Assembly (NCBI RefSeq): GCF_018448935.1
Contig: NZ_RCWC01000005.1
Location: forward strand, 1-64,000
Direction: 5' to 3'
DNA length: 64,000 nucleotides
DNA from: Photorhabdus noenieputensis
Lineage (GTDB): Bacteria; Pseudomonadota; Gammaproteobacteria; Enterobacterales; Enterobacteriaceae
The notes under the pieces were generated by a model. That model ran no database searches and was not told the DNA's origin. It saw only the letters and a program-made list of their open reading frames with translations. Shown piece after piece: positions 15,927 to 41,253 of the stretch. The translations under genes and the position numbers were made by a program. Each line of letters starts with the position of its first letter. The stretch's first letter is position 1.

Positions 15927-15931
15927 AATCT

Positions 15932-17155: not shown

Positions 17156-17156
17156 C

Positions 17157-20582: not shown

Positions 20583-20587
20583 TCGAT

Positions 20588-21658
20588 ATGAAAAAAATCA
20601 TTACCGTATTAGGTGCCAGACCGCAATTCATTAAAGCCAGCCCAGTCTCTCGCGCTTTAAAAAATCATAATAAATTTAAAGAGATTATCATTCATACCGG
20701 TCAACATTTTGATACTAATATGTCTGATATATTTTTTAATGAATTAGCCATTCCCAAACCGGATTACACACTCAATATTCATGGCGGCTCGCACGGTGAA
20801 ATGACCGGAAAAATGCTCATAGAAATTGAAAAAGTACTTATCACAGAAAAACCGGATGCCGTTATGGTATATGGTGATACAAACTCGACTTTAGCTGGCG
20901 CATTAGCCGCCTCTAAATTACATATTCCCATTATCCATGTTGAAGCCGGTCTGCGCAGTTTTAATATGCAGATGCCCGAAGAGATCAATAGAATATTAAC
21001 CGATAATGTCAGCTCAATTCTCTTCTGCCCAACAGACGCCGCTGTCAATAACCTACAAGCAGAAGGCTTCAATTCAAAGCCCGTTCATATCAGAAAAGTC
21101 GGTGATGTCATGGAAGATGCCGCTTTATATTTCAGCCAAACAGCAAAAAAACCTGATGAGCTAGATTCCATACAAAACTTCATATTAGCCACACTCCATC
21201 GTGCTGAAAATACCGATAATCAGGCACGTTTAACTGAAATAGTAAACGCATTGAATGATATACACAGAAGAATTGCTACTGTTGTTATGCCGATCCACCC
21301 AAGGACTAAAAAAATGTTAGCACAATACGGCTTACATTTAGATGTCCATTTAATTGAGCCAGTGGGATATTTAGAGATGATCTGGCTACTCAAAAACACC
21401 GCCCTGATTATTACCGATAGCGGCGGACTGCAAAAAGAGGCTTTCTTCTTCCGTAGACCTTGTATCACCGTGAGAGATCAAACTGAATGGGTAGAATTAA
21501 TTGAAGCCGGCGTAAATAAACTCTCAAAAGCTGAAAATAAAAAAATAACCCAGGCCGTTCATGACATGATAGGGACTAATATGGCCTCTATTCAATCCAT
21601 GTATGGCGGCGGTATCGCCGCGACAAGAATTGCTGACGAATTAGAAAAATTACTATGA
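20588..21658 (+). CDS. wbpI: UDP-GlcNAc(3NAc)A 2-epimerase (WbpI family)
   Basis: This 356-residue non-hydrolysing 2-epimerase of the WecB/WbpI family has VLGARPQFIKASPVSRAL at the N-terminus, HTGQHFD, VYGDTNSTLAGALAA, HVEAGLRSF (catalytic His/Glu loop), TLHRAENTD and TDSGGLQKEAFF. It converts UDP-GlcNAc(3NAc)A to UDP-ManNAc(3NAc)A, the last step of the pathway started by wbpA. No other acidic-sugar epimerase is in locus 1, which favours WbpI over WecB. It starts 5 bp after the previous gene. Confidence 0.92.
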   Translation: MKKIITVLGARPQFIKASPVSRALKNHNKFKEIIIHTGQHFDTNMSDIFFNELAIPKPDYTLNIHGGSHGEMTGKMLIEIEKVLITEKPDAVMVYGDTNSTLAGALAASKLHIPIIHVEAGLRSFNMQMPEEINRILTDNVSSILFCPTDAAVNNLQAEGFNSKPVHIRKVGDVMEDAALYFSQTAKKPDELDSIQNFILATLHRAENTDNQARLTEIVNALNDIHRRIATVVMPIHPRTKKMLAQYGLHLDVHLIEPVGYLEMIWLLKNTALIITDSGGLQKEAFFFRRPCITVRDQTEWVELIEAGVNKLSKAENKKITQAVHDMIGTNMASIQSMYGGGIAATRIADELEKLL

Positions 21659-22893
21659 ATATCGTCTATATAAACCATTATGCGGGTTCGCCGGACCTGG
21701 GTATGGAATTTCGCCCATATCATTTAGGGCAAGAGTGGATTAAATCTGGACATAATATTACCCTACTCGCAGCCTCCTATTCTCATGTCCGAACAAAACA
21801 ACCTAAGCTGATAGATAATAAAAAAACCACCGAAAATATTAACGGATTAGAATATGTCTGGTATCCAACCCCGAGCTATAGCGGAAATGGATTACCCAGA
21901 GTCAAAAATATTTTCTCTTTTTTACGGCAAATTTGGTTTGATAGTCACAATCTAGTTAAAAAATATCGACCTGATGTTGTCATTGCTTCAAGTACATATC
22001 CGATGGATATCTGGGTGGCAAAACGTATTGCTCAAAAAGCTAATGCCAAATTGGTCTTTGAACTACATGATTTATGGCCGCTTTCCCCCATAGAATTAGG
22101 TGGCATGTCACCGAAACATCCCTTTATTCAATTATGTCAATTCGCTGAAAACTCGGCTTATAAACATGCGGATATGGTTGTTTCCATGCTTCCTAACGTA
22201 CAAGAACATACGAAAGCACATGGATTAGGTCTTAATAAATTACATATTATTCCCAATGGTGTAGTTATAGATGATTGGGTAAATCAACTCACGCCATTAA
22301 ACAGCTTACTTGAAACGTTAATCACAGCTGAAAAAAATAAAGGGCACAAAATTGTATGTTATTGTGGCGCTCACGGACGGCCAAATGCACTAGAAAGATT
22401 ACTCAAAACAGCTTCACTGCTTCATGATAAACCCATTACTTTTTTATTGGTTGGCACTGGCTTCGAAAAGGAGAATTTAATTAAAGAATCTGAATCACTG
22501 GGAATACATAACGTTATCTTCTTTGAGCCGATCCCTAAAACTCAAATCCCGACACTACTCAATAAAATTGACATTGCCTATATAGGGTTACAAAAACAAT
22601 CATTATTCAGATTTGGCATCAGCCCCAATAAACTTATCGATTATATGATGGCGGGCAAACCCATTTTATGTGCGATTGATGCCGGTAATGATCCGGTTTC
22701 CGAAGTGAATTGCGGTATCACCGTTAAGTCAGGCAAGCCAGAAGACATTGCTCAAGCCTTATTAAAACTCAGTGAATTATCAAATGAAAAATTAAACCAA
22801 ATGGGACAAAAAGGTAAAATTTACGCTTTAGAAAATCACGCTTATTCCGTATTAGCAGACAATTTCATAAAGGCTACAATTAATCATGAATAA
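21655..22893 (+). CDS. wbpJ: GT4 glycosyltransferase, WbpJ-like
   Basis: This 412-residue GT-B enzyme begins MNIVYINHYAGSPDLGMEFRPYHL, a start typical of the WbpJ/WbuB group of GT4 proteins. It has VFELHDLWPLSP and IIPNGV in the N-terminal half and FGISPNKLIDYMMAGKPIL in the donor domain. It overlaps wbpI by 4 bp and the downstream aminotransferase by 8 bp. As the second GT4 of the operon it probably adds the other uronic acid, or the sugar next to the primer residue. Direction of addition cannot be read from sequence. Confidence 0.83.
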   Translation: MNIVYINHYAGSPDLGMEFRPYHLGQEWIKSGHNITLLAASYSHVRTKQPKLIDNKKTTENINGLEYVWYPTPSYSGNGLPRVKNIFSFLRQIWFDSHNLVKKYRPDVVIASSTYPMDIWVAKRIAQKANAKLVFELHDLWPLSPIELGGMSPKHPFIQLCQFAENSAYKHADMVVSMLPNVQEHTKAHGLGLNKLHIIPNGVVIDDWVNQLTPLNSLLETLITAEKNKGHKIVCYCGAHGRPNALERLLKTASLLHDKPITFLLVGTGFEKENLIKESESLGIHNVIFFEPIPKTQIPTLLNKIDIAYIGLQKQSLFRFGISPNKLIDYMMAGKPILCAIDAGNDPVSEVNCGITVKSGKPEDIAQALLKLSELSNEKLNQMGQKGKIYALENHAYSVLADNFIKATINHE

Positions 22894-24043
22894 TAAATTC
22901 CTTCCTTTTGCATTACCTGAAATTGGACAATCTGAAATTGATGAAGTTATTGACTCACTTAAAACGGGTTGGATAACCACCGGGCCTAAAGCCAGAAGAT
23001 TTGAACAAGATTTTGCCCAATATTTGGGTTCTGATGTTGAAGCAATTTCTGTAAATTCAGCTACGGCGGGATTACATTTAGCGTTGGAAGCCATTGGTAT
23101 CCAGCCGGGTGATGAAGTCATCGTTCCGACCTATACCTTTACGGCAACCGCAGAAGTTGTCCGTTATTTAGGGGCTCACCCTGTTTTTGTTGACTCTTTA
23201 CCTGACAGCCTGAATATTGACCCAATAGCAATAGAAAAAGCCATAACCGCCAAAACTAAAGCAATTATGCCTGTACACTTTGCGGGTCTGTCCTGTGATA
23301 TGGATGCCATTATTGCGTTAGCTAAAAAATTTAATTTACGAATAGTTGAAGATGCCGCCCATTCATTTCCGACTTTATACAAGGGAAAGAAAATTGGCAC
23401 ACTAGACACCGATGTCACCGTATTCAGCTTCTACGCGAATAAAACCATGACGACAGCAGAGGGCGGCATGCTAGTCTCCAGAGATCCAGATATCATAAAA
23501 AGAGCAAAAATAATGCGTCTCCACGGCATTAGCAAAGACGCCTTTGATAGATATCAATCTAAAATACCTGCCTGGTATTATGAAGTGATTGAGCCAGGAT
23601 ATAAATATAACATGCCCGATATTTGTGCATCCATCGGCATCCATCAATTACAGAAAATAAACACTTTCCACAAGAAAAGAGAGGAGATGGCGAAACTCTA
23701 TGATGATGAATTAAAAGATCTGCCCATTATCTTACCTACTAAGCCTAAAGAACCTAATAGCCAACACGCCTGGCATCTATATACCATTAGATTAAACGAT
23801 GAAGTCAAAATATCCAGAGATAATTTCATTATAAAAATGGCAGAAAAAAATATAGGTTGCTCTGTCCATTTTATTCCACTGCATAAACAACCCATCTGGA
23901 AAAACACCTATTCTCTTAATGAAAATAACTTCCCCGTTGCAGAAGAGAATTTTAAAAGAATTGTCTCGATCCCTTTATATACAAAAATGACAAAAGAAGA
24001 CCAAATCTACGTTATCAAAACAATTAAAGAGATCTTGGCATAA
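22886..24043 (+). CDS. UDP-4-keto-6-deoxy-sugar aminotransferase (DegT family)
   Basis: This 385-residue PLP aminotransferase has Lys186 in SFYANKTMTTAEGGM as the cofactor lysine and VEDAAHSF (154-161) contacting the pyridine ring. It closely follows the pattern of enzymes that aminate UDP-4-keto-6-deoxy-HexNAc (PglE/WeeJ type). With the WbpM homologue two genes later, it would make UDP-4-amino-4,6-dideoxy-GlcNAc (UDP-QuiNAc4N). A decayed paralogue lies at 34076-34295 in locus 2. No dedicated 4-N-acetyltransferase gene is seen beside it. Confidence 0.85.
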   Translation: MNNKFLPFALPEIGQSEIDEVIDSLKTGWITTGPKARRFEQDFAQYLGSDVEAISVNSATAGLHLALEAIGIQPGDEVIVPTYTFTATAEVVRYLGAHPVFVDSLPDSLNIDPIAIEKAITAKTKAIMPVHFAGLSCDMDAIIALAKKFNLRIVEDAAHSFPTLYKGKKIGTLDTDVTVFSFYANKTMTTAEGGMLVSRDPDIIKRAKIMRLHGISKDAFDRYQSKIPAWYYEVIEPGYKYNMPDICASIGIHQLQKINTFHKKREEMAKLYDDELKDLPIILPTKPKEPNSQHAWHLYTIRLNDEVKISRDNFIIKMAEKNIGCSVHFIPLHKQPIWKNTYSLNENNFPVAEENFKRIVSIPLYTKMTKEDQIYVIKTIKEILA

Positions 24044-24655
24044 ATGATGACATATTATTTAGCTCTAAAAAGGCTTTTTGATTTTACTTCTTCCTTCATT
24101 GGACTCATTCTATTATTCCCTATTTTAATCACTATTGCTATCTGGATAAAAATGGATTCGAAAGGACCCATTTTTTTCCGACAAAAACGAGTAGGCCAAT
24201 ATAATCAAGATTTCTATATTCACAAATTCAGGAGCATGACAACGGGATCGGAGCAAAAAGGACAACTCACTATTGGTAATGACCTCCGTATTACCAATTC
24301 TGGAAAATTCATCCGCAAATATAAAATTGATGAATTAGCTCAACTGATTGATGTTGTTCGAGGCAAAATGAGTTTAGTCGGGCCAAGACCTGAAGTGCCA
24401 CAATTTATGGACAAATATCCGGATGATGTCAGAAACAAAATATTATCAGTAAAACCCGGCATAACCGATTTGGCTTCCATAGAAATGATCGATGAAAACC
24501 AGATACTAAGTCAATATCAAGATCCACATCAAGCTTATATTGATATTATTATGCCGATAAAAGCCAAGTACTATTTAGAATATATTGATAAAAAGTCATT
24601 TTTCTATGACCTGAAGATTATTTTTAAAACAATTTACAAAGTAGTTTTTAGGTAA
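24044..24655 (+). CDS. Initiating sugar-1-phosphate transferase (PglC-type PHPT)
   Basis: This 203-residue monotopic phosphoglycosyltransferase begins with a hydrophobic reentrant segment (LFDFTSSFIGLILLFPILI). It then has KMDSKGPIFFRQKRVGQ, FYIHKFRSM and KYKIDELAQLIDVVRGKMSLVGPRPEVP, which contains the catalytic Asp-Glu pair (DE in KIDEL). It transfers a sugar-1-phosphate to undecaprenyl phosphate to start the repeat unit. The small size is like PglC/WcaJ-C rather than full WbaP. Given the aminotransferase and WbpM around it, the likely donor is UDP-QuiNAc4N(Ac). A second member of the family is at 35499. Confidence 0.87.
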   Translation: MMTYYLALKRLFDFTSSFIGLILLFPILITIAIWIKMDSKGPIFFRQKRVGQYNQDFYIHKFRSMTTGSEQKGQLTIGNDLRITNSGKFIRKYKIDELAQLIDVVRGKMSLVGPRPEVPQFMDKYPDDVRNKILSVKPGITDLASIEMIDENQILSQYQDPHQAYIDIIMPIKAKYYLEYIDKKSFFYDLKIIFKTIYKVVFR

Positions 24656-24661
24656 TTAACC

Positions 24662-26539
24662 ATGATGAACAAAAGAATGTTTTTCAATCAAGATAGATTA
24701 ATGAAGACTATCGTTCTTCTAATTGTAGATATATTTATTATCATTATTTCATACTGGCTAAGCATGTGGCTACGCCTTGATAGAGAAGTGCCCATCTACA
24801 GCTTACAACATTGGTTAACTATCATATTCGCCATACCCTTAACGCTATTTATTTTTTTAAGAATTGGCTTTTACAGATCGATATTAAAATATGTCAACAT
24901 GAGCATATTGAAATGGGCCATTGTTGGTTCATTTCTATCTACTCTACTATTAACTGCAATTTCCTTATACCAGCAAGCATTTTTACCCAGAACTGTACCA
25001 ATTATCTATTTCTCTTTTTTAGTTATCTCACTCTGCGGCACAAGATTTGTCTATAGAACGCTACGTAATTTAATAAAATATAAAGGCGCTCCTGTTATCA
25101 TATACGGAGCCGGAGAATCTGGCCGACAACTCTTACCCATATTAAGAGAACATAGAGAATTCAACCCAATTGCTTTTGTTGATGATAATGACAAATTACA
25201 TAATTTATCTATTCATGGAATTTGTGTCTTTTCTCCAGAGAAGATAACGCTCTTAGTAGAAAAATACCATATAAAGAAAATATTATTAGCCATACCCAGC
25301 GCATCAATATCTAATAGAAAAAAAATACTTGAAAGACTCCAAAAAGAGCATTGTGAAATCCTCACCATCCCAAGCTTCAATGATCTGGTTGAAGGCAAAG
25401 CGCAAATAAACTCACTGAAACGTGTTTCCATTAACGATCTGTTAGGCAGAGAACAAGTTAACCCATTACCAAGCTTACTCAGTAAAAATATCAAAAACAA
25501 AAATGTGCTTATTACTGGTGCCGGTGGTTCAATCGGATCAGAATTATGCAGGCAAATCATCACTCAGTCTCCTTCGCAACTGATCTTATTTGAATTAACC
25601 GAATATTGCCTTTACTCAATAGAAAAAGAGTTACAAAAGATAAACTCAGATAAAGATTTGAATATAACAATTACTGCAATTCTCGGTGATATAAAAGATT
25701 CAGATAAAATAGCCAGAATAATCAATAAATTTAACATTAATACCATATACCATGCTGCGGCATATAAACATGTTCCACTGGTAGAAATGAATACCATAGA
25801 GGGCATTAATAACAATATTTTTGGCACCCTCTCACTTGCTAAAGCCGCAGTTAATGAAAAAGTTGAAAAATTTGTATTAATCTCTACCGACAAAGCCGTC
25901 CGCCCGACGAATACAATGGGCGCGACAAAAAGATTTGCCGAGCTGATACTGCAAGCTTTTGCTAAAGAGAACAGTTATACCAAATTCTCAATGGTTCGCT
26001 TTGGCAACGTCCTTGGTTCATCCGGTTCCGTTGTCCCCCTATTCGAGAAACAGATAAAAAGTGGTGGGCCGATGACCCTCACTCACAAAGACATTACCCG
26101 TTACTTCATGACCATCCCGGAAGCCGCCCAATTAGTTATCCAAGCAGGAGCGATGGGCAATAATGGCGACGTCTTTGTTCTGGATATGGGCGAATCAGTA
26201 AAAATTTATGATCTCGCCCGGAAAATGATCCATCTTTCTGGGCTGGCCGTAAAAGATGAAGCCAATCCTCATGGCGATATCGAAATCAAAATTACCGGAT
26301 TAAGACCCGGTGAAAAACTTTATGAAGAGCTCTTAATTGGTGATAATGTCTCTGGCACCAATCACCCAAGAATAATGACAGCCAATGAAGTTTTTCTGAC
26401 TTGGGATAAATTAAACCCATTATTAAATGACCTAAAAACATCTTGTGAAAATTACGATTTTGAAAATATTAGGAAGCTCCTTATCAATGCTCCTATTGAT
26501 TTCCATCCTAAAGATTACATTTACGATCTTCTAAAATAA
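24662..26539 (+). CDS. wbpM: WbpM-like UDP-GlcNAc 4,6-dehydratase (copy 1)
   Basis: This 625-residue membrane-bound dehydratase has four TM segments in the first 130 residues, a CoA-binding-like Rossmann domain (about 140-270), then an SDR domain with GAGGSIG (286-292). DKAVRPTNTMGATKR (410-424) has methionine in place of the usual catalytic tyrosine (Met419-x3-Lys423), the hallmark of the WbpM/FlaA1 group. It produces UDP-4-keto-6-deoxy-GlcNAc. It closes the biosynthetic part of locus 1, as wbpM does in P. aeruginosa. It is very similar to the copy at 37613, most strongly over the last 550 bp. Confidence 0.93.
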   Translation: MMNKRMFFNQDRLMKTIVLLIVDIFIIIISYWLSMWLRLDREVPIYSLQHWLTIIFAIPLTLFIFLRIGFYRSILKYVNMSILKWAIVGSFLSTLLLTAISLYQQAFLPRTVPIIYFSFLVISLCGTRFVYRTLRNLIKYKGAPVIIYGAGESGRQLLPILREHREFNPIAFVDDNDKLHNLSIHGICVFSPEKITLLVEKYHIKKILLAIPSASISNRKKILERLQKEHCEILTIPSFNDLVEGKAQINSLKRVSINDLLGREQVNPLPSLLSKNIKNKNVLITGAGGSIGSELCRQIITQSPSQLILFELTEYCLYSIEKELQKINSDKDLNITITAILGDIKDSDKIARIINKFNINTIYHAAAYKHVPLVEMNTIEGINNNIFGTLSLAKAAVNEKVEKFVLISTDKAVRPTNTMGATKRFAELILQAFAKENSYTKFSMVRFGNVLGSSGSVVPLFEKQIKSGGPMTLTHKDITRYFMTIPEAAQLVIQAGAMGNNGDVFVLDMGESVKIYDLARKMIHLSGLAVKDEANPHGDIEIKITGLRPGEKLYEELLIGDNVSGTNHPRIMTANEVFLTWDKLNPLLNDLKTSCENYDFENIRKLLINAPIDFHPKDYIYDLLK

Positions 26540-26752
26540 TATCTATAAATACATTCATGTCATGAAACTGGCTGGAAATCATATAATTCAGAAAATTAAA
26601 ATAACAAGCTAACAAAAACCTCATTATTAGATATATCATATGCATTATACTTCCTTCATTTATTCCCTCAACAAAGGAGAATGATTAAACATCTGGAAAT
26701 TATGAAACCAGCCTCTTAGCATGAGTCTATAAACTTATGAAACAGTACCCAA

Positions 26753-27712
26753 ATGGCTATATTCATCAACCGTAAAGTAACAGCCAATGCCTATGGACTA
26801 TTCTCCGGTGTTTTTTGGGGACTCACTGGTGTTCTTTTAGCTATTTTATTAAAAAGCAACACTCTTTCCTCTTATTTCTTTATTCCTATCATTATTGCTT
26901 TCCTAAATGATACGATTTCATGCGGATATATGTTTATATATCTTATAGTTAAAGGAAAATACCGAGCGATACGCCTTATCCCCAAAAACAAGAAAAATGG
27001 CATAATTATACTAGCGGCTATATTTGGCGGCCCAATTGGCATGTCTTGTTATATTTTAGCTATACAATACATTGGTATTAGCTACACAGCCACTATTTCG
27101 GCAACTTACCCTGCTATTGGGGCGCTCATTTCTTTTTTCCTGCTTAAAGATCGTATTCACCTTATCGGCATATTGGGATTAATACTGGCCGTTGTATGCA
27201 CTATGATACTCGGTTATTCGGCATCAACTCAGACAATATCTGGTTGGATAGGTTTTCTCTTCGCTTTTATATGCGCACTAGGCTGGAGTTCCGAAGTTGT
27301 TATCAGCTCTTACGGTATGAACAAAGATATACCTGCTGATATTGCTTACTTCATCAGGCAATTATCATCCTCAGTGGGCTATTTAGTTATTATCATATTA
27401 TTCATTCACTCTTTCCCTGGTATTGTAAACATATTCTCAAATATAGAATTATACTCCTTATTGTTTTTCACCTCTCTGGTCGCCACGCTATCGTACCTCT
27501 TCTACTACAAAGCAATCTGCATGCTTCAACCCATCCGTGCAATGAGTTTAAATATCACCTATGCTATCTGGGCAGTGATTTTTGCTTGTTTGCTGGTAGA
27601 CGAACCCATCTCTATAAAACTCCTACTCCTATGCGTAGGAGTCTCTGCTGGTTCATTCCTGACTGCCGTAAATCCACTTAATATCAAAAAATTGATTCTG
27701 ACACTTAAATGA
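26753..27712 (+). CDS. EamA/DMT-family transporter
   Basis: This 319-residue protein has about ten TM segments in two five-helix repeats, the layout of EamA drug/metabolite transporters. The second repeat ends WAVIFACLLVDEPISIKLLLLC, and GLFSGVFWGLTGVLLAILL and GYYA-like YLFYYKAI motifs are also typical. The gene is separated by 213 bp from wbpM and so probably has its own promoter. It may not be part of polysaccharide assembly. The substrate cannot be inferred. It lies at the right edge of locus 1, beside the fossil junction. Confidence 0.8.
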   Translation: MAIFINRKVTANAYGLFSGVFWGLTGVLLAILLKSNTLSSYFFIPIIIAFLNDTISCGYMFIYLIVKGKYRAIRLIPKNKKNGIIILAAIFGGPIGMSCYILAIQYIGISYTATISATYPAIGALISFFLLKDRIHLIGILGLILAVVCTMILGYSASTQTISGWIGFLFAFICALGWSSEVVISSYGMNKDIPADIAYFIRQLSSSVGYLVIIILFIHSFPGIVNIFSNIELYSLLFFTSLVATLSYLFYYKAICMLQPIRAMSLNITYAIWAVIFACLLVDEPISIKLLLLCVGVSAGSFLTAVNPLNIKKLILTLK

Positions 27713-27869
27713 GTACGATTCTGTTCGTATCGTAACAAGTTTAGGCTTGCTTTAATGTTATAGTTAAATAAAACTACTAAAACTCCACTCCCTATCAATA
27801 CCAAGTATTCCCTAATCTACACCAACCACTCCCCTCTCTTCTCTAGCCTTTTAGATAACAATCACTATT

Positions 27870-28015
27870 GGGTTTCTACACCTTCAAAGATTACGGATTT
27901 CAGAATCAGGAACATCGTTATCCCACCAATCACAATGCTAAATAAACATAATGTCACAATTAAGCTTTACTACCGAATGGATATCACGGAAACATTGCCA
28001 CATCCCGATGCGAAT
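27870..28015 (-). pseudogene. cysE: Decayed cysE fragment (central part)
   Basis: Read on the minus strand, the segment carries GATATCCATTCGG, then CATTATGTTTATT, CATTGTGATTGGTG and GATGTTCCTGATTCTG. In the same order, intact cysE (45617-46438) has GATATTCATCCGG, CATTATGCTTGATC, CATTGTGATTGGTG and GACGTTTCTATCCTGC. The intact gene encodes DIHPAAKIGCGIMLDH followed by GIVIGE and NDVSILQSV there. Several short deletions and stops break the frame. Only the middle of the gene can be recognised, and the boundaries are approximate. It has the orientation of the live gene and lies just left of a decayed cpxA end. Confidence 0.72.
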
Positions 28016-28049
28016 GGAATAGCAGCAAACTTGTTGAAAAATAAGGCAT

Positions 28050-28096
28050 CATAGCACGTTTTCGGTAAGATCTAACTGCCATTCCATGAACAGTAA
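28050..28096 (+). pseudogene. cpxA: Decayed cpxA 3' end
   Basis: The last codons read L-P-F-H-E-Q-stop (ending at 28096), matching L-P-L-H-G-R-stop of cpxA. The following AATACAGATTTCAGCTAAC equals the live downstream sequence AATACAGATTTCCGCTAAC. Similarity continues through the whole leader to the second JUMPstart (CTTGACCC, CTCCCC, GACAAAAG and GAAAAATCAG-type blocks in the same order). The upstream limit is uncertain because only some 45 bp of coding similarity is visible. Confidence 0.72.
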
Positions 28097-28280
28097 TACA
28101 GATTTCAGCTAACTGTATTCTACCAATTAGCTAAACAAGTGGTTTGTTAAACTTGACCCAGAAGAATTTACAGTCTAATCTCCCCGCAACTAGTTACAAA
28201 ATCTTATCCCCCATTACTTTTTGTTAAGACAGACAAAAGTATTGAGAAATCAGGGAAATAGATAAGATTTACGAATACCA

Positions 28281-28320
28281 CAGGCACTCTGGGAGCCAAA
28301 AACCTAGTGCGGTAGCTTTG
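28281..28320 (+). promoter_or_regulatory. JUMPstart/ops element of O-antigen locus 2
   Basis: CAGGCACTCTGGGAGCCAAA followed by AACCTAGTGCGGTAGCTTTG is a close JUMPstart match, with the ops core GCGGTAGC-TT at 28309-28319. The last 18 bases are identical to the locus 1 element. It should recruit RfaH for the operon starting with wzx at 28582, about 260 nt downstream. The leader between is AT-rich and contains a hexanucleotide tandem repeat. Confidence 0.9.
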
Positions 28321-28470
28321 CTTATCCATAGGATATAGATAACATTCAAAGCTCTTCAAGGCCCTCAAAACATCAGTGAATTTATGAAATATATGGTCAT
28401 AAAACCTATATTCTAAATTCTACCTATAACAAAAAGTATAACCTTAGGAAAATAAAAGAAATTTTTATTT

Positions 28471-28506
28471 AAAGCTAAAGCTAAAGCTAAAGCTAAAGCT
28501 AAAGCT
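28471..28506 (+). repeat. Hexanucleotide tandem repeat (AAAGCT)6
   Basis: Six perfect copies of AAAGCT lie in the 5' leader of locus 2, between the JUMPstart element and the wzx start codon (76 bp upstream of it). Perfect short tandem repeats can change copy number by slipped-strand mispairing. Here this would alter the leader length and not a reading frame. Confidence 0.95.
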
Positions 28507-28581
28507 ACTTACATCATATTTTTGTATCTCGAAAAAAACCATACCTCCATAATTTTAAATTAAGCTATTAAAAATTAAAAG

Positions 28582-29820
28582 ATGAAAGAAGCAATCACGA
28601 AAAATAGTGTACTAAGTAATATTAATGCTTTATTTATTACGCAAATAGCAAATTATTTATCTTTATTATTGATATTTCCTTATTTAAGTCGAATATTAGG
28701 TATTGACGGTTTTGGTAAAATAGGAATATCACTGTCTATTATATCTATTTTTCTAATTTTGACCGATTATGGATTTAATCTATCAGCTCCTAGTTGGATC
28801 GCCAATAATAAAAAAAACATAAATAAAACATGTGAATATATAGGGGCTATTTTTATACTAAAAATATTACTAACAACTTTAGGCATTATGTTACTTTTTA
28901 TTTTTACTTATTCTCATGACACATTACTAACCGATATTAAATTAATAGTCTCCATTGCACTATGCGCCACTTTTCAATCCATGCAACCAACTTGGTTTTT
29001 TCAAGGGATTGAGAAAATGAGAAAAATAACTTACTATACCATTATAGCTAAAGCTATTTACATGATCCTAGTATTGTTTTTTGTAAAAAATCCGGGACAA
29101 GAATGGTTAGTCATATTTTTTCAAGCAATAAGTTTTTGCTTGTCTTCAAGCATAGCTATTTATTTTATATACCGTGAAGGATATACAATTAGGTTAATCT
29201 CTAATCCTCGGATTATAAAAGTATTTAAAGAAAGCACTTGGTTTTTTATATCTAGAGCTGCCGTTTGTGTATATACTAGTGCAAGTACGTTAATCATCGG
29301 TAGTGCTGCCGGGGTTCAGCAAGCAGGTCTATATTCTAGTTCAGAAAAAATATATAATGCAGGACAAGGAATTATATCACCAATAAGTCAAGCAATTTAT
29401 CCATACCTCTCAAGATCTGGTGATAAAAGATTTCTTTACAAAATATCATTTATTATTGCAATACCAATGATAATCGGCTGCTATGTTATTACATCTTTTT
29501 CAAGTGATATTCTAACTATTTTCTACGGCCCATCATTTTCATCTGCGGCCCCAATATTGAATATTTTTTTATTCTGCCTAATAATAAATTATATCAGTGT
29601 CAATTTTGGATATCCAGCTTTTTCTATAATAAAAAGGTTAGATATTGCAAATAAAACTGTAATATTAGGTGCATTATTACAATTAATAAATTTGATTATA
29701 TTGTTTTATACTGAGAGTATTAATGCAATAAATATTTCATTAGCTATACTTATTGTTGAAATAATAGTCATGATTGTGCGGGTGGTTATTTTCATATCCT
29801 TAATTAATAGACCACAATAA
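28582..29820 (+). CDS. wzx: O-antigen flippase Wzx (locus 2)
   Basis: This 412-residue protein has about 12 TM segments and the PST/Wzx opening SVLSNINALFITQIANYLSLLLIFPYLSRILG. It also has QSMQPTWFFQGIEKM and a YSSSEKIYNAGQGIISPISQAIYPYLSR segment typical of RfbX-type flippases. It should flip lipid-linked repeat units. It differs strongly from the locus 1 Wzx, so it is not a duplicate. It is the first intact gene after the second JUMPstart and is very AT-rich. Its ribosome-binding site is weak. Confidence 0.9.
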   Translation: MKEAITKNSVLSNINALFITQIANYLSLLLIFPYLSRILGIDGFGKIGISLSIISIFLILTDYGFNLSAPSWIANNKKNINKTCEYIGAIFILKILLTTLGIMLLFIFTYSHDTLLTDIKLIVSIALCATFQSMQPTWFFQGIEKMRKITYYTIIAKAIYMILVLFFVKNPGQEWLVIFFQAISFCLSSSIAIYFIYREGYTIRLISNPRIIKVFKESTWFFISRAAVCVYTSASTLIIGSAAGVQQAGLYSSSEKIYNAGQGIISPISQAIYPYLSRSGDKRFLYKISFIIAIPMIIGCYVITSFSSDILTIFYGPSFSSAAPILNIFLFCLIINYISVNFGYPAFSIIKRLDIANKTVILGALLQLINLIILFYTESINAINISLAILIVEIIVMIVRVVIFISLINRPQ

Positions 29821-29864
29821 ACTAGCACTCATTTTATCACGTACTGGAAACAAGGCTGTTAGAA

Positions 29865-31013
29865 ATGAAGAAATTTAGAAAACTATATTCTGGTTTATTA
29901 CTATTAATTCAATATCCGTTTTACCCTATATCATTTTTATTTTATAGAAATAAAAATAGATGGATATTTGGAAGTTATGGCATATATAACGATAACAGTA
30001 GGTACCTTTTTGAATATTGTAATAAGCACTGTCCAGAAATTAGAGCTATTTGGATCGGGAAAAATAGATATTCTATATTACCTATAATTAAAGATGGATA
30101 TGAAGCGTACACAAAATATAGTTTAAAAGGATTATATTATCAATTAACATCAAAAGTCTATATATACTCCTCATACGTAAATAATATAAACTTCTTTACG
30201 AGTGGCAATACACTATTAGTTAATTTATGGCATGGGATACCATTGAAAAAAATAGAATTTGATATAAATACATTACCATTATCAAAATACTTTAAAAATG
30301 CTACATTTATTACAAAAATCTTATACCCTCAATATCATAAGAAACCAGATCTATTATTATCTCCCGGTGAATTTGTATATAATTATTCATTCAAAACAGC
30401 ATTCAAATTACCAAAAGAAAATATTATATTCGCAAATTACCCTAGGGTAAACAACTTAATAAATAGAAAAAACGTAAACAAAGAATTTTATTTCTTATAT
30501 ACCCCTACATGGAGAGACGATGATCATGACTTTCTATGTAATAAATTAGAGCTATTAGAAAAAATAAATGAATTTTGTAATAAAAGAAAGTGTAAATTTT
30601 TACTCAAGTTACATGCAAATACAAATATGAATAATGCCGAGATAGGAAATCTAAATAGAATAGAAATAGTCAACAATAAAACAGATCCTAATGAAGTATT
30701 AAGTAAAGCTGATTGCTTAATAACAGATTATTCATCCATATATTTCGATTATTTATATCTTAATAGACCTATTATTTTCTTCACATACGATGAAGATTCC
30801 TATTCAAAGAATAGAGAATTGTATAATTTGCCAGAGAATATCAGGCCAGGACCAATAGTAAGAGAAGACGATGCTCTATTGTCTTTATTTAAAAATATAC
30901 TAGATGGAAAAGACGATTTTAAAATAGCTAGAAACAATATAAAGAAATTGTTTTCTTCATCTGAAAATGACGATTTCATCATTCAAAGAATAAGAGAAAA
31001 ATTAACTAATTAA
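29865..31013 (+). CDS. TagB/TagF-like CDP-glycerol glycerophosphotransferase
   Basis: This 382-residue protein matches the CDP-glycerol:poly(glycerophosphate) glycerophosphotransferase family. It has LWHGIPLKK with His123, YTPTWRDD (212-219), LLKLHANT with His250, and [21 protein letters not shown] (286-306). The two histidines correspond to the catalytic pair of TagF. An N-terminal hydrophobic stretch (10-26) may anchor it to the membrane. It would add glycerol phosphate (or another polyol phosphate) to the lipid-linked repeat. The CDP-glycerol synthase TagD is encoded at 39925 in the same locus. Confidence 0.85.
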
Positions 31014-31029
31014 TTCATAAGGTGAGAAA

Positions 31030-32058
31030 TTGAAAATTTACATTTTTAGCGAAATTAATTACAATGATAATAAACATATAAACCAATATCTATTCGATTA
31101 CCTTACAGAGAAAGAAGATGATTGTTATTTTGTTGAGAGAGTAACAATGAAATTTCCTAAGTTGCAGCATTTCATTTCTCTTTTCAAAAAAAATAAAGCA
31201 GTGAATAAAGATAAAACTAAAATAATAAAATGTAGAATACTACCTCCTTTAAGAGTATTTAAGATTTTAAATTATTTTTTATTAAAAAAAGCAAATCTGA
31301 TTTTAAATGAAAGTGATATTATTATTAGCTTTGTACCACATTCACATGTTTATGATATTGCAGGAAATAAAGCAAAAAAAATATATTACTGTGTGCATGA
31401 TTCCCAAAAACAAAATTACCCGATTAATATTATCCCATATGAGAAAAAACTAGCAAATAAATCTATATTTTTCTGTGATAACGAAACTGTTATGAAAAAT
31501 ATCACAACTAATTACCATCTATCTTATGATGAAAGAAGAGAGAAAAATATATCAGACTATAAAGCATTTTTAGTTCCTCCTCCTGTTCCAGATGAATTTT
31601 TCAAAATTAATAAAGACCAAGAGATAAAGTATAATTTCGTTTATTATGGTAGTTTTCATCCGCATATCGATATCGGACTTATTAAACAGTTATCAAAAAG
31701 ATACACCATCTTAATTATCAGTAATAATCCCCCTTCTGATTTAAAGAGAAATAATAATATTACCATATTAAAATCTATTTATGATATGGAAGAATTGGCT
31801 AACAAAATAAATAGTGCAGAAAACATACTATTGCCTTACGATAATAGCTATTTTATGTCTACCATAACCCCAGCTAAAGCTTTACAAGTTAAATCGTTTG
31901 GGAAGGGAGTTTATTGTAGTAATATTTGCATTTCAAAAAAATATAAATTTTCAACACAATTAAAAAAACTAAAGCCAACAGAAAAAATTACTCAAGATTA
32001 TTCTGTATCTAATATCTGTGATTTCTTATACGATATAATAAGCCAGAAAAACAATTAA
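31030..32058 (+). CDS. Glycosyltransferase (GT-B, GT4/GT1-like), locus 2
   Basis: This is a 342-residue soluble protein with the outline of a GT-B glycosyltransferase. The N-terminal part contains VHDSQKQNYP. A linker VPPPVPDEFF follows, then a donor-type domain with FVYYGSFHPHIDIGLIKQL and LLPYDNSYFMSTITPAKALQVKSFG. The conserved glutamate motif of GT4 is not clear, so the family is uncertain. The start is TTG at 31030 with AAGGTGAG just upstream. It ends in a 1 bp overlap with wzy. Acceptor and donor are unknown. Confidence 0.65.
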   Translation: MKIYIFSEINYNDNKHINQYLFDYLTEKEDDCYFVERVTMKFPKLQHFISLFKKNKAVNKDKTKIIKCRILPPLRVFKILNYFLLKKANLILNESDIIISFVPHSHVYDIAGNKAKKIYYCVHDSQKQNYPINIIPYEKKLANKSIFFCDNETVMKNITTNYHLSYDERREKNISDYKAFLVPPPVPDEFFKINKDQEIKYNFVYYGSFHPHIDIGLIKQLSKRYTILIISNNPPSDLKRNNNITILKSIYDMEELANKINSAENILLPYDNSYFMSTITPAKALQVKSFGKGVYCSNICISKKYKFSTQLKKLKPTEKITQDYSVSNICDFLYDIISQKNN

Positions 32059-33224
32059 TGGATACTTCAATAATATTCTTTATTACCTCAATAATTATAC
32101 TATCAGTAGGATTAAACTCATTTACAAAATCGCTACTGGCATCATCAATTTTACTAGCACTAACTCCGTTAGGTGAGTTAAATGTACATATCCCATTAAT
32201 CTTATTATCAATACTACTCTGCTTATTAAATAAAGACTTCACCATATCCAAAAATAGATTATTATATTTCATCTTATTTATATCTTTAAGTATAATTATA
32301 TTCTTTTTTTCTTTCTATATTGACATTATAAAAACAATAGGAAAATGGGCAAAAACAATAGCCTTAATGTTTCCCCTTACTTTTATATCTAATAATAAAA
32401 TAAAGAAAGAAATTAATATTCAAATTCTATTTAAATCAATTCTATTATTATCAATAATTGGAACTTTTATATGGATATTTAATAGACAATACCATAGTGG
32501 CATAGAAGGTACTTATAGATTATCTGGTTTAGCACTAGATCCTAATTATACAGCAATACTATTAATTTCTTTTTTATTTCTAATAAAATTATTAAATTAT
32601 AAACTTACAAATACTGTTCTCATACTTACTTATATACTAATACTAACAACACAAGCGGTATCATCCATAGTTATTGCTATAATACTCTACATAATAATAT
32701 ATAAATTGCCTATTCCTTATCTGAAAAAAAATCGTAGTCTATTTAGGTTACTTGTATTCCTTATTTTAGGTAATTTATTCTCTACCTATGAAATAAGTCA
32801 AATATTCCATATTAATCTGTTTAATGATTGGCAAAATAACTACCTATCAATGAAGTTAAATTCAATGTTTATCAGATTAAATTCACAAATTGGTGGGATA
32901 AAAATGCTTGTTGCCGAGCCTAGTCGGCTATTATATGGATTTGGTTCTCATGTAAGCTTTAAGCTTTTTGGTAAAGTTATGCATCATGCTTATTTGCAAA
33001 CTATATTTGATCATGGGATTATTTTCTTAGCGATGTTATTTTTCTATATAAATACAGCTTTAAAGAAATACCCAGTTTATCCATTGTTTTTCTATTTACA
33101 AATCATGAATTTTTTATTCGATACATATTTTATGGGAATAGTAACTTTCATGTATATTATTTATATAAGTATAGAAAAAACCGAATACTATGGCAGTACA
33201 GAAAATAAATATAATCTTCCATAA
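32058..33224 (+). CDS. wzy: O-antigen polymerase Wzy (locus 2)
   Basis: This 388-residue multispanning protein has about ten TM segments and the Wzy/WaaL (O-antigen polymerase) signature region around residues 145-165, GTYRLSGLALDPNYTAILL. A long extramembrane stretch near 250-300 contains GIKMLVAEPSRLLYGFGSH. It should join repeat units in the periplasm. No resemblance to the locus 1 Wzy is evident, so the two loci make different linkages. It overlaps the upstream GT by 1 bp. Confidence 0.83.
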   Translation: MDTSIIFFITSIIILSVGLNSFTKSLLASSILLALTPLGELNVHIPLILLSILLCLLNKDFTISKNRLLYFILFISLSIIIFFFSFYIDIIKTIGKWAKTIALMFPLTFISNNKIKKEINIQILFKSILLLSIIGTFIWIFNRQYHSGIEGTYRLSGLALDPNYTAILLISFLFLIKLLNYKLTNTVLILTYILILTTQAVSSIVIAIILYIIIYKLPIPYLKKNRSLFRLLVFLILGNLFSTYEISQIFHINLFNDWQNNYLSMKLNSMFIRLNSQIGGIKMLVAEPSRLLYGFGSHVSFKLFGKVMHHAYLQTIFDHGIIFLAMLFFYINTALKKYPVYPLFFYLQIMNFLFDTYFMGIVTFMYIIYISIEKTEYYGSTENKYNLP

Positions 33225-33243
33225 TAGATAAATAGGAATCAAA

Positions 33244-34050
33244 ATGAATTTCTCCGTTCTAATGTCATTATATGACAAAGAATCTCCTTCTTATCTAGAT
33301 CAGTGCCTAGAAAGTTTATTTAATCAAAAATTGAAATCGAATGAAATAGTTTTAATTTTTGATGGAAAAATAAATTTAGAACTAGAAAAAACTGTTTCTA
33401 ATTGGATGGATTTATTACCAATAAAAATTATAAGATTAGAAGAAAATGTAGGATTAGCATCGGCATTAAATATAGGATTAGAATTTTGCAACAACGAACT
33501 TATTGCAAGAATGGATACTGACGATATTTGTGAATACGATAGATTTTTCCAACAAGTAAAATATTTAAAAAAGAACCCTAATACAGATATTGTCGGCATG
33601 TGGATCTCAGAAATAGATGAAAATAATAATATAATAAAAGGGTTAGTTAAGTATCCATTAGAACATAAGGATCTATTAAGTTTCTTTTCTAAACGAGCAC
33701 CATTAGCGCATCCTTCTGTAATGTTCAGAAAATCCTTTTTCAATAAAGCGGGTATCTACCCAACTAATATACTATTAGAAGAAGATACAGCATTATGGTA
33801 CAATGGATTTTTAAATAATTGTATATTTGCTAATATACCTTATATAGGGTTAAAATTCAGAAGAACAAGTAATTTTTATAAACGTCGTTCTAACCTTAGA
33901 AAAACTATAGATTTATTAAAATTTCGTTTAATAGTTATTAATAGAAAGTTAGGGTACGGATTAAAAGGTGATATATATGCCGTTTTATATTTCTTCATAT
34001 CACTATCTCCCAGTTTTATGAAAAAGGTCTTATACAAATATTTAAGATGA
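33244..34050 (+). CDS. GT2 family glycosyltransferase, locus 2
   Basis: This 268-residue GT-A enzyme of family GT2 starts NFSVLMSLYDKESPSYLDQCLESL. It has the nucleotide-binding aspartate in IVLIFDG, the metal-binding DTDD motif in ARMDTDD, and a later EEDTALW acidic motif (catalytic base region). It resembles small O-antigen galactosyl- or N-acetylhexosaminyltransferases. It is the last intact gene before a 1.4 kb stretch of fossils. The ribosome-binding site is AGGAAT. Confidence 0.85.
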   Translation: MNFSVLMSLYDKESPSYLDQCLESLFNQKLKSNEIVLIFDGKINLELEKTVSNWMDLLPIKIIRLEENVGLASALNIGLEFCNNELIARMDTDDICEYDRFFQQVKYLKKNPNTDIVGMWISEIDENNNIIKGLVKYPLEHKDLLSFFSKRAPLAHPSVMFRKSFFNKAGIYPTNILLEEDTALWYNGFLNNCIFANIPYIGLKFRRTSNFYKRRSNLRKTIDLLKFRLIVINRKLGYGLKGDIYAVLYFFISLSPSFMKKVLYKYLR

Positions 34051-34075
34051 CATTGAAAATTAACTCTAGAAAATT

Positions 34076-34295
34076 ATGAGTAAATTCTTACCATTTACAT
34101 TACCTAGAATTGATGAGATCATTAATTCACTTAAAACGGATTGGATAACTACAGCTCATAAAGCAAAAGATTTGAACAAAACTCTGTTCAACATTTGAAC
34201 TATAATGTTGAAACAATTACTACAAATTTAGCAACTGCTGGACTACATTTAACTCTGGAAACAATCGGTATCTAAGAAGCTGGATAACTACTTAA
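34076..34295 (+). pseudogene. Decayed aminotransferase fragment
   Basis: The start reads MSKFLPFTLPRIDEIINSLK then DWITTAHKA, matching MNNKFLPFALPEIGQSEIDE and SLKTGWITTGPKA of the aminotransferase at 22886. After a frameshift and stop, NVETITTNLATAGLHLTLETIGI matches DVEAISVNSATAGLHLALEAIGI. Only the first 70 or so codons remain. It lies just after the GT2 gene, upstream of the second initiating transferase, the same relative slot as the intact gene in locus 1. Confidence 0.88.
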
Positions 34296-34730
34296 CCAGC
34301 TGAATTTACACCCGGCGTTTACAGACGCTACTGAGTATTGATTTTCTAAACATGTCGGTTCTGAATTCAGAAATGGCCGTCATTTTATGAATTATCCCAG
34401 TTTGGTCCCCAAAGAAAAGAGCGGAGCCGTGATAGTATGAATAAGGCGGCCGTTGTCCTGACGAATAAAAATAACCGAATAGCCTGAACATTAGTCAGAA
34501 ACAAAACGAAATACGTAGAATGTCTATTCCCAGTAGTGGTTGATACACTGATAGGTAGGACAAACTCTCTATGAACCTGGCAAATATCTCAGTTTTTCAA
34601 AACGATTGAAATAATTAGGGCAAAGAGTGTGGATAATTATTAGGGCCTTTCTGAAGCCGAATAAATATATGTTTGCGGTTACATTGTCAACAGAAAGAAA
34701 AATCATCACTTGTATTGAATTAGCATCCGT
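34296..34730. other. Gene-free degraded stretch
   Basis: No supportable gene is seen. A 61-codon minus-strand open frame (34306-34491) has a GC content closer to the chromosome than its neighbours and could be part of a decayed insertion, but I recognise no family. The region joins the aminotransferase fossil to the palindromic repeat. Confidence 0.5.
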
Positions 34731-34872
34731 ATATACTCTATGGATTTCAAGATGCTTCGCGATGGCAAGGGAGCGAATCCCCGGGAGCATAGATAACTAT
34801 GTGGCCAGGCTGAACGAATAAAGAGGCAAGAGGCAAGAGGCAAGAGGCAACTTGAAAGATAACGGGTATATA
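34731..34872. repeat. Photorhabdus/Xenorhabdus-type dispersed palindromic element
   Basis: The segment starts TATACTCTATGGATTTCAAG, has a central CGAATCCCCGGGAGCATAGA, and ends CAACTTGAAAGATAACGGGT-ATA. The two ends are imperfect inverted repeats of each other (TATAC..ATTTCAAG and its complement). I recall this sequence as a common non-coding repeat in Photorhabdus and Xenorhabdus intergenic regions. It has no coding capacity and may be a MITE-like element. Confidence 0.75.
34821..34848 (+). repeat. Heptanucleotide tandem repeat (AAGAGGC)4
   Basis: Four perfect copies of AAGAGGC lie within the right arm of the dispersed palindromic element. Confidence 0.95.
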
Positions 34873-35498
34873 CTATTTAGATAACTTTACCTAGTAATAA
34901 TAGATCATCCGAAAAAAATTAAATCTGGTGTAGATTCTTTGAACAATTTTCAACTTACTAACTGAAAAAAACGCATCCCACACTGAAAGTGAGTACACAA
35001 AAGTTAGACGCTACGACGCTACCAAGTATCTAAAACAAATGACCACACCAAATAGAGTCTATACTGATAAGCTCAGATAATTCCATAACAATCGTAAGCT
35101 AGAAAAATAACCACTCAATAACCCCAAATTTATGCTGTTATATTCACCTATTCATTCGCTTAACTTAATAAAATCAAATAGTAACAATTATCTCTGTAGA
35201 AGAAATACATAATCACCTTTATAGCAACTGCTAAAAAGTTCCTCGACATATATCAGAAGGTAGCAAAAATGAAACGATATTAAGCAAAGTCATTTTAGAT
35301 AATGAAATCATTGTCCCACTAATATATCCTTATTACTACAATATAATAAAAATATTATCACTATGAGAGCAAGCAATGCCTAGGGAATAGCATATAATTT
35401 AATCTACATTCGTTCAATTCTAAATATCTATATATCTCTTAATTACTTATTCTCCAATTCCCCTGAGATAAAAAAACATTTATTAATATCTAGTAAAT
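34873..35498. other. AT-rich stretch without a gene
   Basis: I see no open frame with family resemblance, no tRNA and no clear terminator here. It probably contains decayed locus 2 sequence and the promoter or leader of the downstream sugar transferase gene. Confidence 0.5.
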
Positions 35499-36098
35499 AT
35501 GAAAAAATCACAAATTTTCCTCAAAAGAATATTTGATCTTATACTATCAATATCAATTATTTTGATTATACTTCCTATAATACTTATAAGCTGGTTTATT
35601 TCTACTATTGAAACACGATCCAATGGTTTTTTCCTACAAAAAAGAGTAGGGCAAAATGGGAAAATATTTTCAGTTATTAAAATAAAAACAATGCGACCAG
35701 TTATTAAAAACGAAAATAGATCGTCAATCACTTCAGAGAATAGTCAATTGATTACTAAAAGTGGTAATTTTTTCAGAAAATACAAAATCGACGAACTACC
35801 TCAATTAATTAATGTGATAATTGGTGATATGAGTTTTGTTGGGCCTCGACCTGACGTTCCCGGATATGCAGATAAGTTAATCGGCGATGATAGAATCATT
35901 CTTAAATTAAAGCCGGGAATAACAGGTCCTGCATCAATAAAATATAAGAATGAAGAGACTTTACTAAAAGAAAAGTCTAATCCTAAAGAATATAATGATC
36001 TCATTATCTGGCCTGATAAAGTCAATATTAATAAGGAATATTACCTAAAATATTCCTTCCTTAAAGACATCAAGTATATTATACATACATTAAAATAA
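35499..36098 (+). CDS. Initiating sugar-1-phosphate transferase, locus 2
   Basis: This 199-residue monotopic phosphoglycosyltransferase has an N-terminal hydrophobic segment (LILSISIILIILPIILISWF), FFLQKRVGQNGKIF, KIKTMRP, FRKYKIDELPQLINVIIGDM with the catalytic Asp-Glu, SFVGPRPDVPGY and LKPGITGPASIKY. It is clearly related to the locus 1 protein at 24044 but divergent. It should start the locus 2 repeat unit on undecaprenyl phosphate. It precedes an aminotransferase by 4 bp and a wbpM copy further on, so its donor is probably a 4-amino-4,6-dideoxy or related HexNAc. Confidence 0.87.
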   Translation: MKKSQIFLKRIFDLILSISIILIILPIILISWFISTIETRSNGFFLQKRVGQNGKIFSVIKIKTMRPVIKNENRSSITSENSQLITKSGNFFRKYKIDELPQLINVIIGDMSFVGPRPDVPGYADKLIGDDRIILKLKPGITGPASIKYKNEETLLKEKSNPKEYNDLIIWPDKVNINKEYYLKYSFLKDIKYIIHTLK

Positions 36099-36102
36099 AG
36101 AG

Positions 36103-37287: not shown

Positions 37288-37612
37288 CATCTTATTTTTA
37301 CCTTAAAATTCAATTATAAAACTAAATTAATTAAATCTCTTTAGTGATCTTGAACTATATTAATAAGGCACCAAAGAGATTATTATATGAATTTGCTTTA
37401 ATAAATACTAACCTATCATTATGCCTCAATTTACAATCTACTCTGTATATTTTCTGCTAATTAAATGAATCCAGAGATATTTAATTAGAAATTTTATAAA
37501 TCTATATAATAAATATACTATTATAATATTGGCTATACATATTTTGAGATTTTAATATTCTTATCGGAAGAATTTCTTACTTATTAAAATGGTATTTAAG
37601 TAATCAAAAATC
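37288..37612. other. AT-rich spacer with a long inverted repeat
   Basis: No gene is seen in this 325 bp gap. A 13 bp inverted repeat (AATCTCTTTAGTG at 37334-37346 and CACCAAAGAGATT at 37369-37381, one G-T type mismatch) could form a hairpin with a 22 nt loop, but no U run follows. The promoter of the second wbpM may lie here. Confidence 0.5.
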
Positions 37613-41232: not shown

Positions 41233-41253
41233 ATTTATTATGCGGGATAACAA

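What the first reader, a model, noticed from the sequence alone, without database searches (positions are those of the whole stretch)
27870..28320. Fossil junction shows two complete O-antigen loci joined in tandem
Between locus 1 and locus 2 there is a decayed cysE fragment (normal right flank) immediately followed by a decayed cpxA 3' end, LPFHEQ-stop for LPLHGR-stop (normal left flank). The whole cpxA-wbpA leader follows, including a second JUMPstart. The simplest reading is cpxA-locus1-cysE joined head-to-tail to cpxA-locus2-trmL-cysE, by recombination of an incoming locus carrying its flanks. The flank genes then decayed while both glycan operons survived. This suggests a cell holding two O-antigen systems, perhaps for switching.
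Basis: partly seen in the sequence, partly recalled or inferred. Interest (0 to 1): 0.85.

Follow-up and report, generated by a model that had tools for sequence, protein, structure and literature searches.

The report
Ancient tandem of two O-antigen loci
Photorhabdus bacteria carry two sets of surface-sugar genes joined end to end, with decayed scraps of the normal neighbouring genes still marking the joint; one set is nearly the same in every species examined and the other differs between most of them.

Summary
Between two glycan operons lie a cysE remnant (27799-27986, minus strand), the last codons of cpxA (28076-28096) and a full second leader with promoter-like site and JUMPstart (28097-28316). 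A cysE profile finds the remnant in 10 of 13 Photorhabdus junctions (21.8-62.6 bits; best of 1600 shuffles 4.1); the other 3 carry a methyltransferase remnant, another right-flank gene. P. asymbiotica's copy still spells LPLHGR-stop, the normal CpxA end. All 12 Photorhabdus genomes have both loci; the 23 Xenorhabdus loci examined have one leader; in 42 other genera cpxA and cysE lie under 3 kb apart. Leaders 1 and 2 separate in a tree (100/99), so the fusion predates these species. Locus 1 is shared over 91-100% in every pair of genomes; locus 2 shares at most 29% in 63 of 66 pairs. Genes present in both loci branch inside Photorhabdus, so own duplication or a donor of the same lineage fits. 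No invertible switch was found; both leaders look usable, so one near-constant plus one variable glycan is the best reading. Expression and linkage are untested.

The parts
10091..11461 (+). cpxA, normal left flank, ends LPLHGR-stop
   Evidence: Pfam HisKA, HATPase_c, CpxA_peri; match at E<=1e-100 in 77 of 119 family genomes
11462..11684 (+). leader 1: promoter-like TTGACC-N17-TAACCT (11521-11549) and JUMPstart (11670-11684)
   Evidence: the name JUMPstart is recalled
11861..27712 (+). locus 1: wbpA-wbpB-wbpD-wbpE-like genes, Wzx-type flippase, C5-epimerase-domain protein, putative Wzy, GT4, wbpI-like, GT, DegT, PglC-type initiating transferase, pglF-like, EamA
   Evidence: families (wbp, pgl names recalled from family resemblance); 14 genes open in 12 of 12 Photorhabdus genomes within a few residues of the window's length
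27799..27986 (-). cysE remnant (profile positions 441-646 of 834)
   Evidence: 34.2 bits, shuffles at most 4.1 of 1600; present in 10 of 13 junctions; blastn
28076..28096 (+). remnant of the cpxA 3' end (LPFHEQ-stop)
   Evidence: P. asymbiotica copy reads LPLHGR-stop; not found by profile
28097..28316 (+). leader 2: promoter-like TTGACC-N17-TAATCT (28153-28181) and second JUMPstart (28302-28316)
   Evidence: mean identity 0.87-0.93 across 9 junctions against 0.71-0.75 in the cysE remnant
28470..28507 (+). (TAAAGC) x 6.3 repeat between JUMPstart 2 and the first gene of locus 2
   Evidence: function not tested
28582..39493 (+). locus 2 variable part: Wzx, CDP-glycerol glycerophosphotransferase-like, unassigned, putative Wzy, GT2, (decayed DegT pieces at 34079-34329), PglC-type transferase, DegT, pglF-like
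   Evidence: first five genes in the same order in the single locus of Xenorhabdus G069 and G078
39925..43579 (+). right part of locus 2: glycerol-3-phosphate cytidylyltransferase, unassigned 40619, galE/gne (41254-42282), methyltransferase MT1 (42881-43579)
43604..43675 (-). second cysE remnant (profile 723-794) between MT1 and trmL: another old right end
   Evidence: 21.0 bits and 23.6 bits; 1000 shuffles at most 5.4
43711..44265 (+). trmL, right flank
   Evidence: SpoU methylase
44799..45518 (+). methyltransferase MT2, related to MT1 (83% over 300 nt)
45617..46453 (-). cysE, normal right flank
   Evidence: Pfam SATase_N and Hexapep; orthologues

Best explanation
Before the sampled Photorhabdus species diverged, two O-antigen loci of the cpxA-[locus]-trmL-cysE type became joined head to tail, by tandem duplication or by recombination with DNA of the same lineage: cpxA-locus 1-cysE fused to cpxA-locus 2-cysE through a joint inside cysE and at the end of cpxA (shown by the fossil pieces; route inferred). 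The internal cysE and cpxA then decayed, but leader 2 was kept with its promoter-like site and a JUMPstart, so locus 2 can be transcribed as its own RfaH-assisted operon (conservation shown, expression inferred). Locus 1 became a near-constant operon under purifying selection, while locus 2 stayed the exchangeable, serotype-like cassette (shown). The cell is therefore expected to make two Wzx/Wzy-type glycans, one common and one variable (inferred).
For: cysE remnant in 10 of 13 junctions far above shuffles, methyltransferase remnant in the other 3. CpxA tail exact in P. asymbiotica. Two leaders 16.6-18.1 kb apart in 11 of 12 genomes by the native JUMPstart pattern, and a JUMPstart core in leader 2 of 12 of 12 counting G002's different one; single-contig assembly G007 and G010's single contig included, so not an assembly fault. 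One leader in 23 of 23 Xenorhabdus loci examined. cpxA and cysE facing and under 3 kb apart in 42 of the 46 family genomes where they lie within 60 kb. L1 and L2 on two sides of one branch, 100/99. Locus 1 shared over 91-100% in every pair of 12 genomes, locus 2 at most 29% in 63 of 66 pairs. Locus 1 dN/dS medians 0.056-0.113. Both kinds of locus occur as the only locus at this site in different Xenorhabdus. Leader 2 is better conserved than the remnant beside it. RfaH 188.8 bits, cut-off 144.5; one WaaL-type match.
Against: The cpxA remnant is only about 21 bp and not found by profile. In the tree with Xenorhabdus, L2 is not one clade, although that is not rejected (p-AU 0.356). 3 of 13 junctions lack the cysE and cpxA pieces. 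P. luminescens (G004) carries a recent copy of locus-1 wbpABDE in locus 2, so the loci have exchanged DNA, which clouds origin tests. Locus 1 is not wholly invariant: 7 of 12 genomes have an extra GT2-like gene. No expression or chemistry was available; Wzy in each locus is assigned only by size and hydrophobicity.
Confidence: 0.8

Rival explanations
1. Tandem duplication of one resident locus by unequal joining of sister chromosomes, followed by replacement of the inside of copy 2 by other alleles (as against an incoming locus that brought its own flanks).
For: Leader, wbpA, DegT, PglC and pglF copies from both loci lie on one Photorhabdus side against Xenorhabdus (leader 100/100; wbpA 92/90, the others 100 SH-aLRT in short searches). 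pglF of locus 2 in the window and G004, and wbpA, DegT and pglF of locus 2 in G005, branch deep beside the locus 1 copies.
Against: A donor of the same lineage gives the same trees. Only G004 and G005 (for pglF also the window) keep such shared genes above the identity cut used (60-65%).
Confidence: 0.5
2. The two loci form a switch: the cell expresses one or the other.
For: Two leaders of the same type; a (TAAAGC) x 6.3 repeat between JUMPstart 2 and the first gene of locus 2 could slip. All 5 perfect runs of 4-8 bp units with 4 or more copies in the Photorhabdus regions lie in locus 2, none in locus 1.
Against: No inverted repeat of 40 bp or more in 9000-47000; promoter-like site in 12 of 12 leader 1 and 12 of 12 leader 2 rows; the repeat unit differs from genome to genome and 8 of 12 Photorhabdus genomes have none.
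Confidence: 0.1
3. Locus 1 is no longer an O-antigen locus but makes another surface polysaccharide (capsule-like or slime), with the variable locus 2 as the only O-antigen.
For: Locus 1 is near-constant while locus 2 varies like serotype loci. A published TT01 versus P. asymbiotica comparison places the LPS difference in a stretch that probably corresponds to locus 2 (PMC2717986, passages read).
Against: Locus 1 keeps the O-antigen leader, position and Wzx and PglC-type genes; no Wza or Wzc family was among the matches of its products.
Confidence: 0.35
4. The second leader is a stray copy of regulatory DNA, or the similarities are chance.
For: The cpxA part is short.
Against: Shuffle controls, 13 junctions, and flank genes of the right kind, order and strand.
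Confidence: 0.02

Closest known systems
[quoted passage not shown]
   Same: Same chromosomal site, flanks and Wzx/Wzy-type content (Proteus PMC5560731 and Morganella PMC8649690, passages read; Xenorhabdus tested here)
   Different: Those passages and loci show one cluster; Photorhabdus has two in tandem with decayed flanks between them
Variable LPS region plu4813-plu4830 / pau04327-pau04342 of P. luminescens TT01 and P. asymbiotica (PMC2717986)
   Same: Very probably locus 2 of two strains; the common plu4796-plu4811 probably corresponds to locus 1 (passages read; mapping by size and order, not tested)
   Different: That paper compared two genomes and, in the passages read, did not describe two loci, a second leader or flank remnants
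Pseudomonas aeruginosa common and O-specific polysaccharides (recalled, not from a call)
   Same: One constant and one variable LPS glycan in a cell would be the same logic
   Different: There the two loci are separate and of different assembly pathways; here both are Wzx/Wzy-like and fused at one site

Membership tests
Wzx/Wzy-type O-antigen gene cluster of the cpxA-cysE site | Lies between cpxA and trmL/cysE | tested here: met
   both loci lie in that interval
Wzx/Wzy-type O-antigen gene cluster of the cpxA-cysE site | JUMPstart leader about 200-220 bp after cpxA | tested here: met
   Leader 1: 199-218 bp in 35 Photorhabdus and Xenorhabdus loci (in G077 the stop was not located exactly); leader 2 of the window 206 bp after the cpxA remnant's stop
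Wzx/Wzy-type O-antigen gene cluster of the cpxA-cysE site | Own flippase (wzx) | tested here: met
   PF13440 at 15932 (locus 1), PF01943 at 28582 (locus 2)
Wzx/Wzy-type O-antigen gene cluster of the cpxA-cysE site | Own polymerase (wzy) | tested here: inconclusive
   Unassigned proteins with 9 (18253) and 8 (32058) hydrophobic segments and no family match
Wzx/Wzy-type O-antigen gene cluster of the cpxA-cysE site | Initiating sugar-phosphate transferase | tested here: met
   PF02397 at 24044 and 35499
Wzx/Wzy-type O-antigen gene cluster of the cpxA-cysE site | Product ligated to lipid A-core | not testable with these tools
   One WaaL-type (PF04932) match in the genome; linkage needs chemistry
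Invertible phase-variation switch | Inverted repeats around a promoter | tested here: not met
   0 inverted repeats of 40 bp or more in 9000-47000; shorter ones not examined

The most novel reading that the evidence does not exclude
The genus has kept, since before its sampled species split, a fused double O-antigen locus that works as a built-in pair: a common glycan from the frozen copy and a variable glycan from the copy left open to exchange. The cpxA-cysE site grows by repeated joining of new right ends, leaving a stack of fossil ends (cysE remnants at 27799 and 43604, trmL remnants in other genomes).
Probability: 0.5. Interest if true: 0.68.

Novelty: new variant of a known kind. Interest (0 to 1): 0.57.

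Why it matters
O-antigen loci are usually pictured as one exchangeable cassette per site. Here a fusion escaped that rule: one copy stopped varying and the other went on, in a genus that lives in both nematodes and insects. It makes a direct test possible of whether that life needs a constant glycan beside a variable one, and it records how such loci are joined, since the joints can be read as fossils.

Tried and rejected
Chance similarity and a stray leader copy: rejected by shuffles and by 13 junctions. Recent acquisition by the window's strain: rejected, both loci are in 12 of 12 genomes. Origin of locus 2 from Xenorhabdus: not supported, shared genes and leaders group on the Photorhabdus side. 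Detecting the cpxA remnant by profile failed. The first alignment of junctions mixed strands for three rows (G009, G001, G002) and was replaced. Literature: 10 searches listed no paper on two tandem O-antigen loci in Photorhabdus; only open-licence papers are held. PMC7305143, PMC2717986, PMC5560731 and PMC8649690 were seen as passages only; the rest as listings.

Limits. In one search, dN/dS rows are missing for 1 of 11 genomes for 15932 and 2 of 11 for 17157, by a length cut or a failed calculation that the script did not report; matches of those genes run one codon past their stop in G007, G008 and G010. The trees of DegT, PglC and pglF are short searches without bootstrap. The gne remnants were not tested against shuffles. 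On checking I withdrew my note that the extra trmL of X. lircayensis is decayed: its frame is open.

Full report
What is there. The window comes from a Photorhabdus genome: the gene before the joint (EamA, 26753-27712) is 90-99% identical to eight named Photorhabdus records, closest P. akhurstii. cpxA ends at 11461; then come a leader, locus 1 (11861-27712), the joint, locus 2 (28582 to 43579), trmL, a methyltransferase and cysE on the other strand.

The joint. In order: cysE remnant on the minus strand (27799-27986), the last codons of cpxA (28076-28096), promoter-like TTGACC-N17-TAATCT (28153-28181) and JUMPstart (28302-28316). A DNA profile of 33 cysE genes scores 21.8-62.6 bits in 10 of 13 Photorhabdus junctions (12 genomes plus the P. 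akhurstii record); 1600 dinucleotide shuffles reach 4.1 at most. The other three (G005, G008, G010) give no cysE match but 86.4-132.4 bits for the methyltransferases that sit beside cysE at the real right flank; shuffles reach 8.5. The cpxA piece is short. It is convincing because it sits at the normal distance before the JUMPstart and because P. asymbiotica's leader 2 reads LPLHGR-stop, exactly the normal end. Against it: a cpxA profile does not detect it, and a loose pattern finds it in 9 of 13 junctions.

Who has it. A DNA search with 27690-28400 in 58 genomes (the own one and 57 relatives) gave two leader matches in the window's genome and in all 11 others of the genus, and outside the genus only two short matches. 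The native JUMPstart occurs twice, 16.6-18.1 kb apart, in 11 of 12; in G002 leader 2 runs into a JUMPstart of another, classic-looking kind. Of 30 Xenorhabdus genomes searched (genus named by two contig lengths), 22 had cpxA and trmL on one contig and were fetched, plus the two ends of G023; each of these 23 has one JUMPstart. The other seven were not examined: six have the genes on different contigs, one has neither match. In 119 genomes of the family, one a genus, 77 have a cpxA match and 74 of these also a cysE match: in 42 the two face each other less than 3 kb apart, 4 lie 3-60 kb apart (the window at 34.2 kb, and 12.0, 12.7 and 20.2 kb), 9 are far apart on one contig and 19 are on different contigs. 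Of the three other long intervals two have one JUMPstart and one has none of the patterns tried. So the short cpxA-cysE interval is the common state, a single locus is usual where there is one, and the double locus was seen only in Photorhabdus in these samples.

Age. Without outgroup, leader 1 (12 genomes) and leader 2 (11 genomes plus P. akhurstii; G002 left out because its JUMPstart differs) separate on one branch with 100/99 support. With Xenorhabdus the 24 Photorhabdus rows are one side of a branch (100/100) and leader 1 is too (100/99); leader 2 is not in the best tree, but one clade is not rejected (p-AU 0.356). Mean identity is 0.81 within leader 1, 0.84 within leader 2, 0.67 between them and 0.51-0.54 to Xenorhabdus. 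The two leaders therefore parted before these species did.

Constant and variable. The 14 genes of locus 1 are open in 12 of 12 genomes within a few residues of the window's length; three matches were flagged because they run one codon past the stop. dN/dS medians against the window are 0.056-0.113. In every pair of the 12 genomes 91-100% of locus 1 is covered by blastn matches; for locus 2 the cover is 93-96% in one pair (P. asymbiotica and P. australis), 50-56% in one (G001, G002), 34-46% in one (G004, G005) and at most 29% in the other 63 of 66. Locus 1 is not wholly invariant: 7 of 12 genomes have an extra GT2-like gene beside DegT. Five genes of the window's locus 2 (wzx to GT2) occur in the same order, at 43-61% amino-acid identity, in the only locus of Xenorhabdus G069 and G078, followed there by DegT, PglC and pglF genes that match the window's copies at 72-82%; the wbpABDE start of locus 1 matches the only locus of G062, G074, G077 and G023 at 83-88%. 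So the two loci are of kinds that elsewhere are alternatives at one site.

Same lineage. wbpA, DegT, PglC and pglF copies of both loci lie on the Photorhabdus side against Xenorhabdus (wbpA 92/90, the others 100 SH-aLRT). In G004 (P. luminescens) a tract of about 4 kb (wbpABDE) is 96-100% identical between its two loci and stops sharply at the leader (0.65-0.69 there), a recent transfer between the loci; its second wbpE is matched in two frames. Duplication and import from a close donor cannot be told apart here.

More fossil ends. A second cysE remnant lies at 43604-43675 between MT1 and trmL (23.6 bits, 1000 shuffles at most 5.4). Of the five genomes with both methyltransferases it is also clear in G004 and G007 (25.8, 21.0), weaker in G006 (12.2) and near noise in G009 (6.1). 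Remnants of gne lie between pglF and EamA of locus 1 in 8 of 12 genomes, not the window (17-42 bits, no shuffle control). trmL remnants precede gne in G007 and G009, a partial trmL precedes the intact one in G157, and X. lircayensis (G075) has a second full-length trmL, with an open frame, before EamA. Right ends seem to have been joined on more than once.

How it likely works. Leaders keep a promoter-like site (12 of 12 leader 1, 12 of 12 leader 2 rows, 23 of 23 Xenorhabdus) and a JUMPstart; leader 2 is as conserved (0.87-0.93) as the neighbouring coding end of EamA (0.90), while the cysE remnant is at 0.71-0.75 and the cpxA end at 0.80 (9 junctions). The genome has an RfaH (188.8 bits, cut-off 144.5), one WaaL-type match and three Wzz-domain proteins, one of them 721 residues long. 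Each locus has a flippase and an initiating transferase of its own. The likeliest outcome is two glycans at once. No expression or chemistry supports this yet.

Literature. In the passages read, the 2009 comparison of P. asymbiotica and P. luminescens (PMC2717986) reports a common stretch plu4796-plu4811 and a replaced stretch plu4813-plu4830; this fits locus 1 and locus 2, though the mapping is by position and size, not tested. The ten searches listed no account of a tandem pair or of the fossil joint.

Noticed in passing
window 28470-28507: Perfect hexamer repeat (TAAAGC) x 6.3 between JUMPstart 2 and the first gene of locus 2; a possible slippage site.
   Followed up: partly
window 34821-34850: (AAGAGGC) x 4.3 in the stretch after decayed DegT pieces (34079-34329) inside locus 2.
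   Followed up: no
window 43604-43675: Second cysE remnant, between MT1 and trmL.
   Followed up: yes
window 17157-18269: Protein with a D-glucuronyl C5-epimerase C-terminal domain (PF06662, 168 bits) inside the conserved locus 1, unusual company for an O-antigen locus.
   Followed up: no
L093 and L094 (G004, P. luminescens), start of locus 2: About 4 kb of wbpABDE nearly identical to the same genome's locus 1: recent transfer between the loci; the copy of wbpE is matched in two frames.
   Followed up: yes
L179 (G075, X. lircayensis): Second full-length trmL with an open frame, before EamA and the usual trmL: perhaps an independent old right end.
   Followed up: partly
L088 (G002), leader 2: Native JUMPstart replaced by a classic-looking one, suggesting that locus swaps can cross over at this element.
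   Followed up: partly
window 2531-4669: Phage replication gene A-like protein (PF05840, 374 bits): a phage or prophage piece left of the cpx genes.
   Followed up: no
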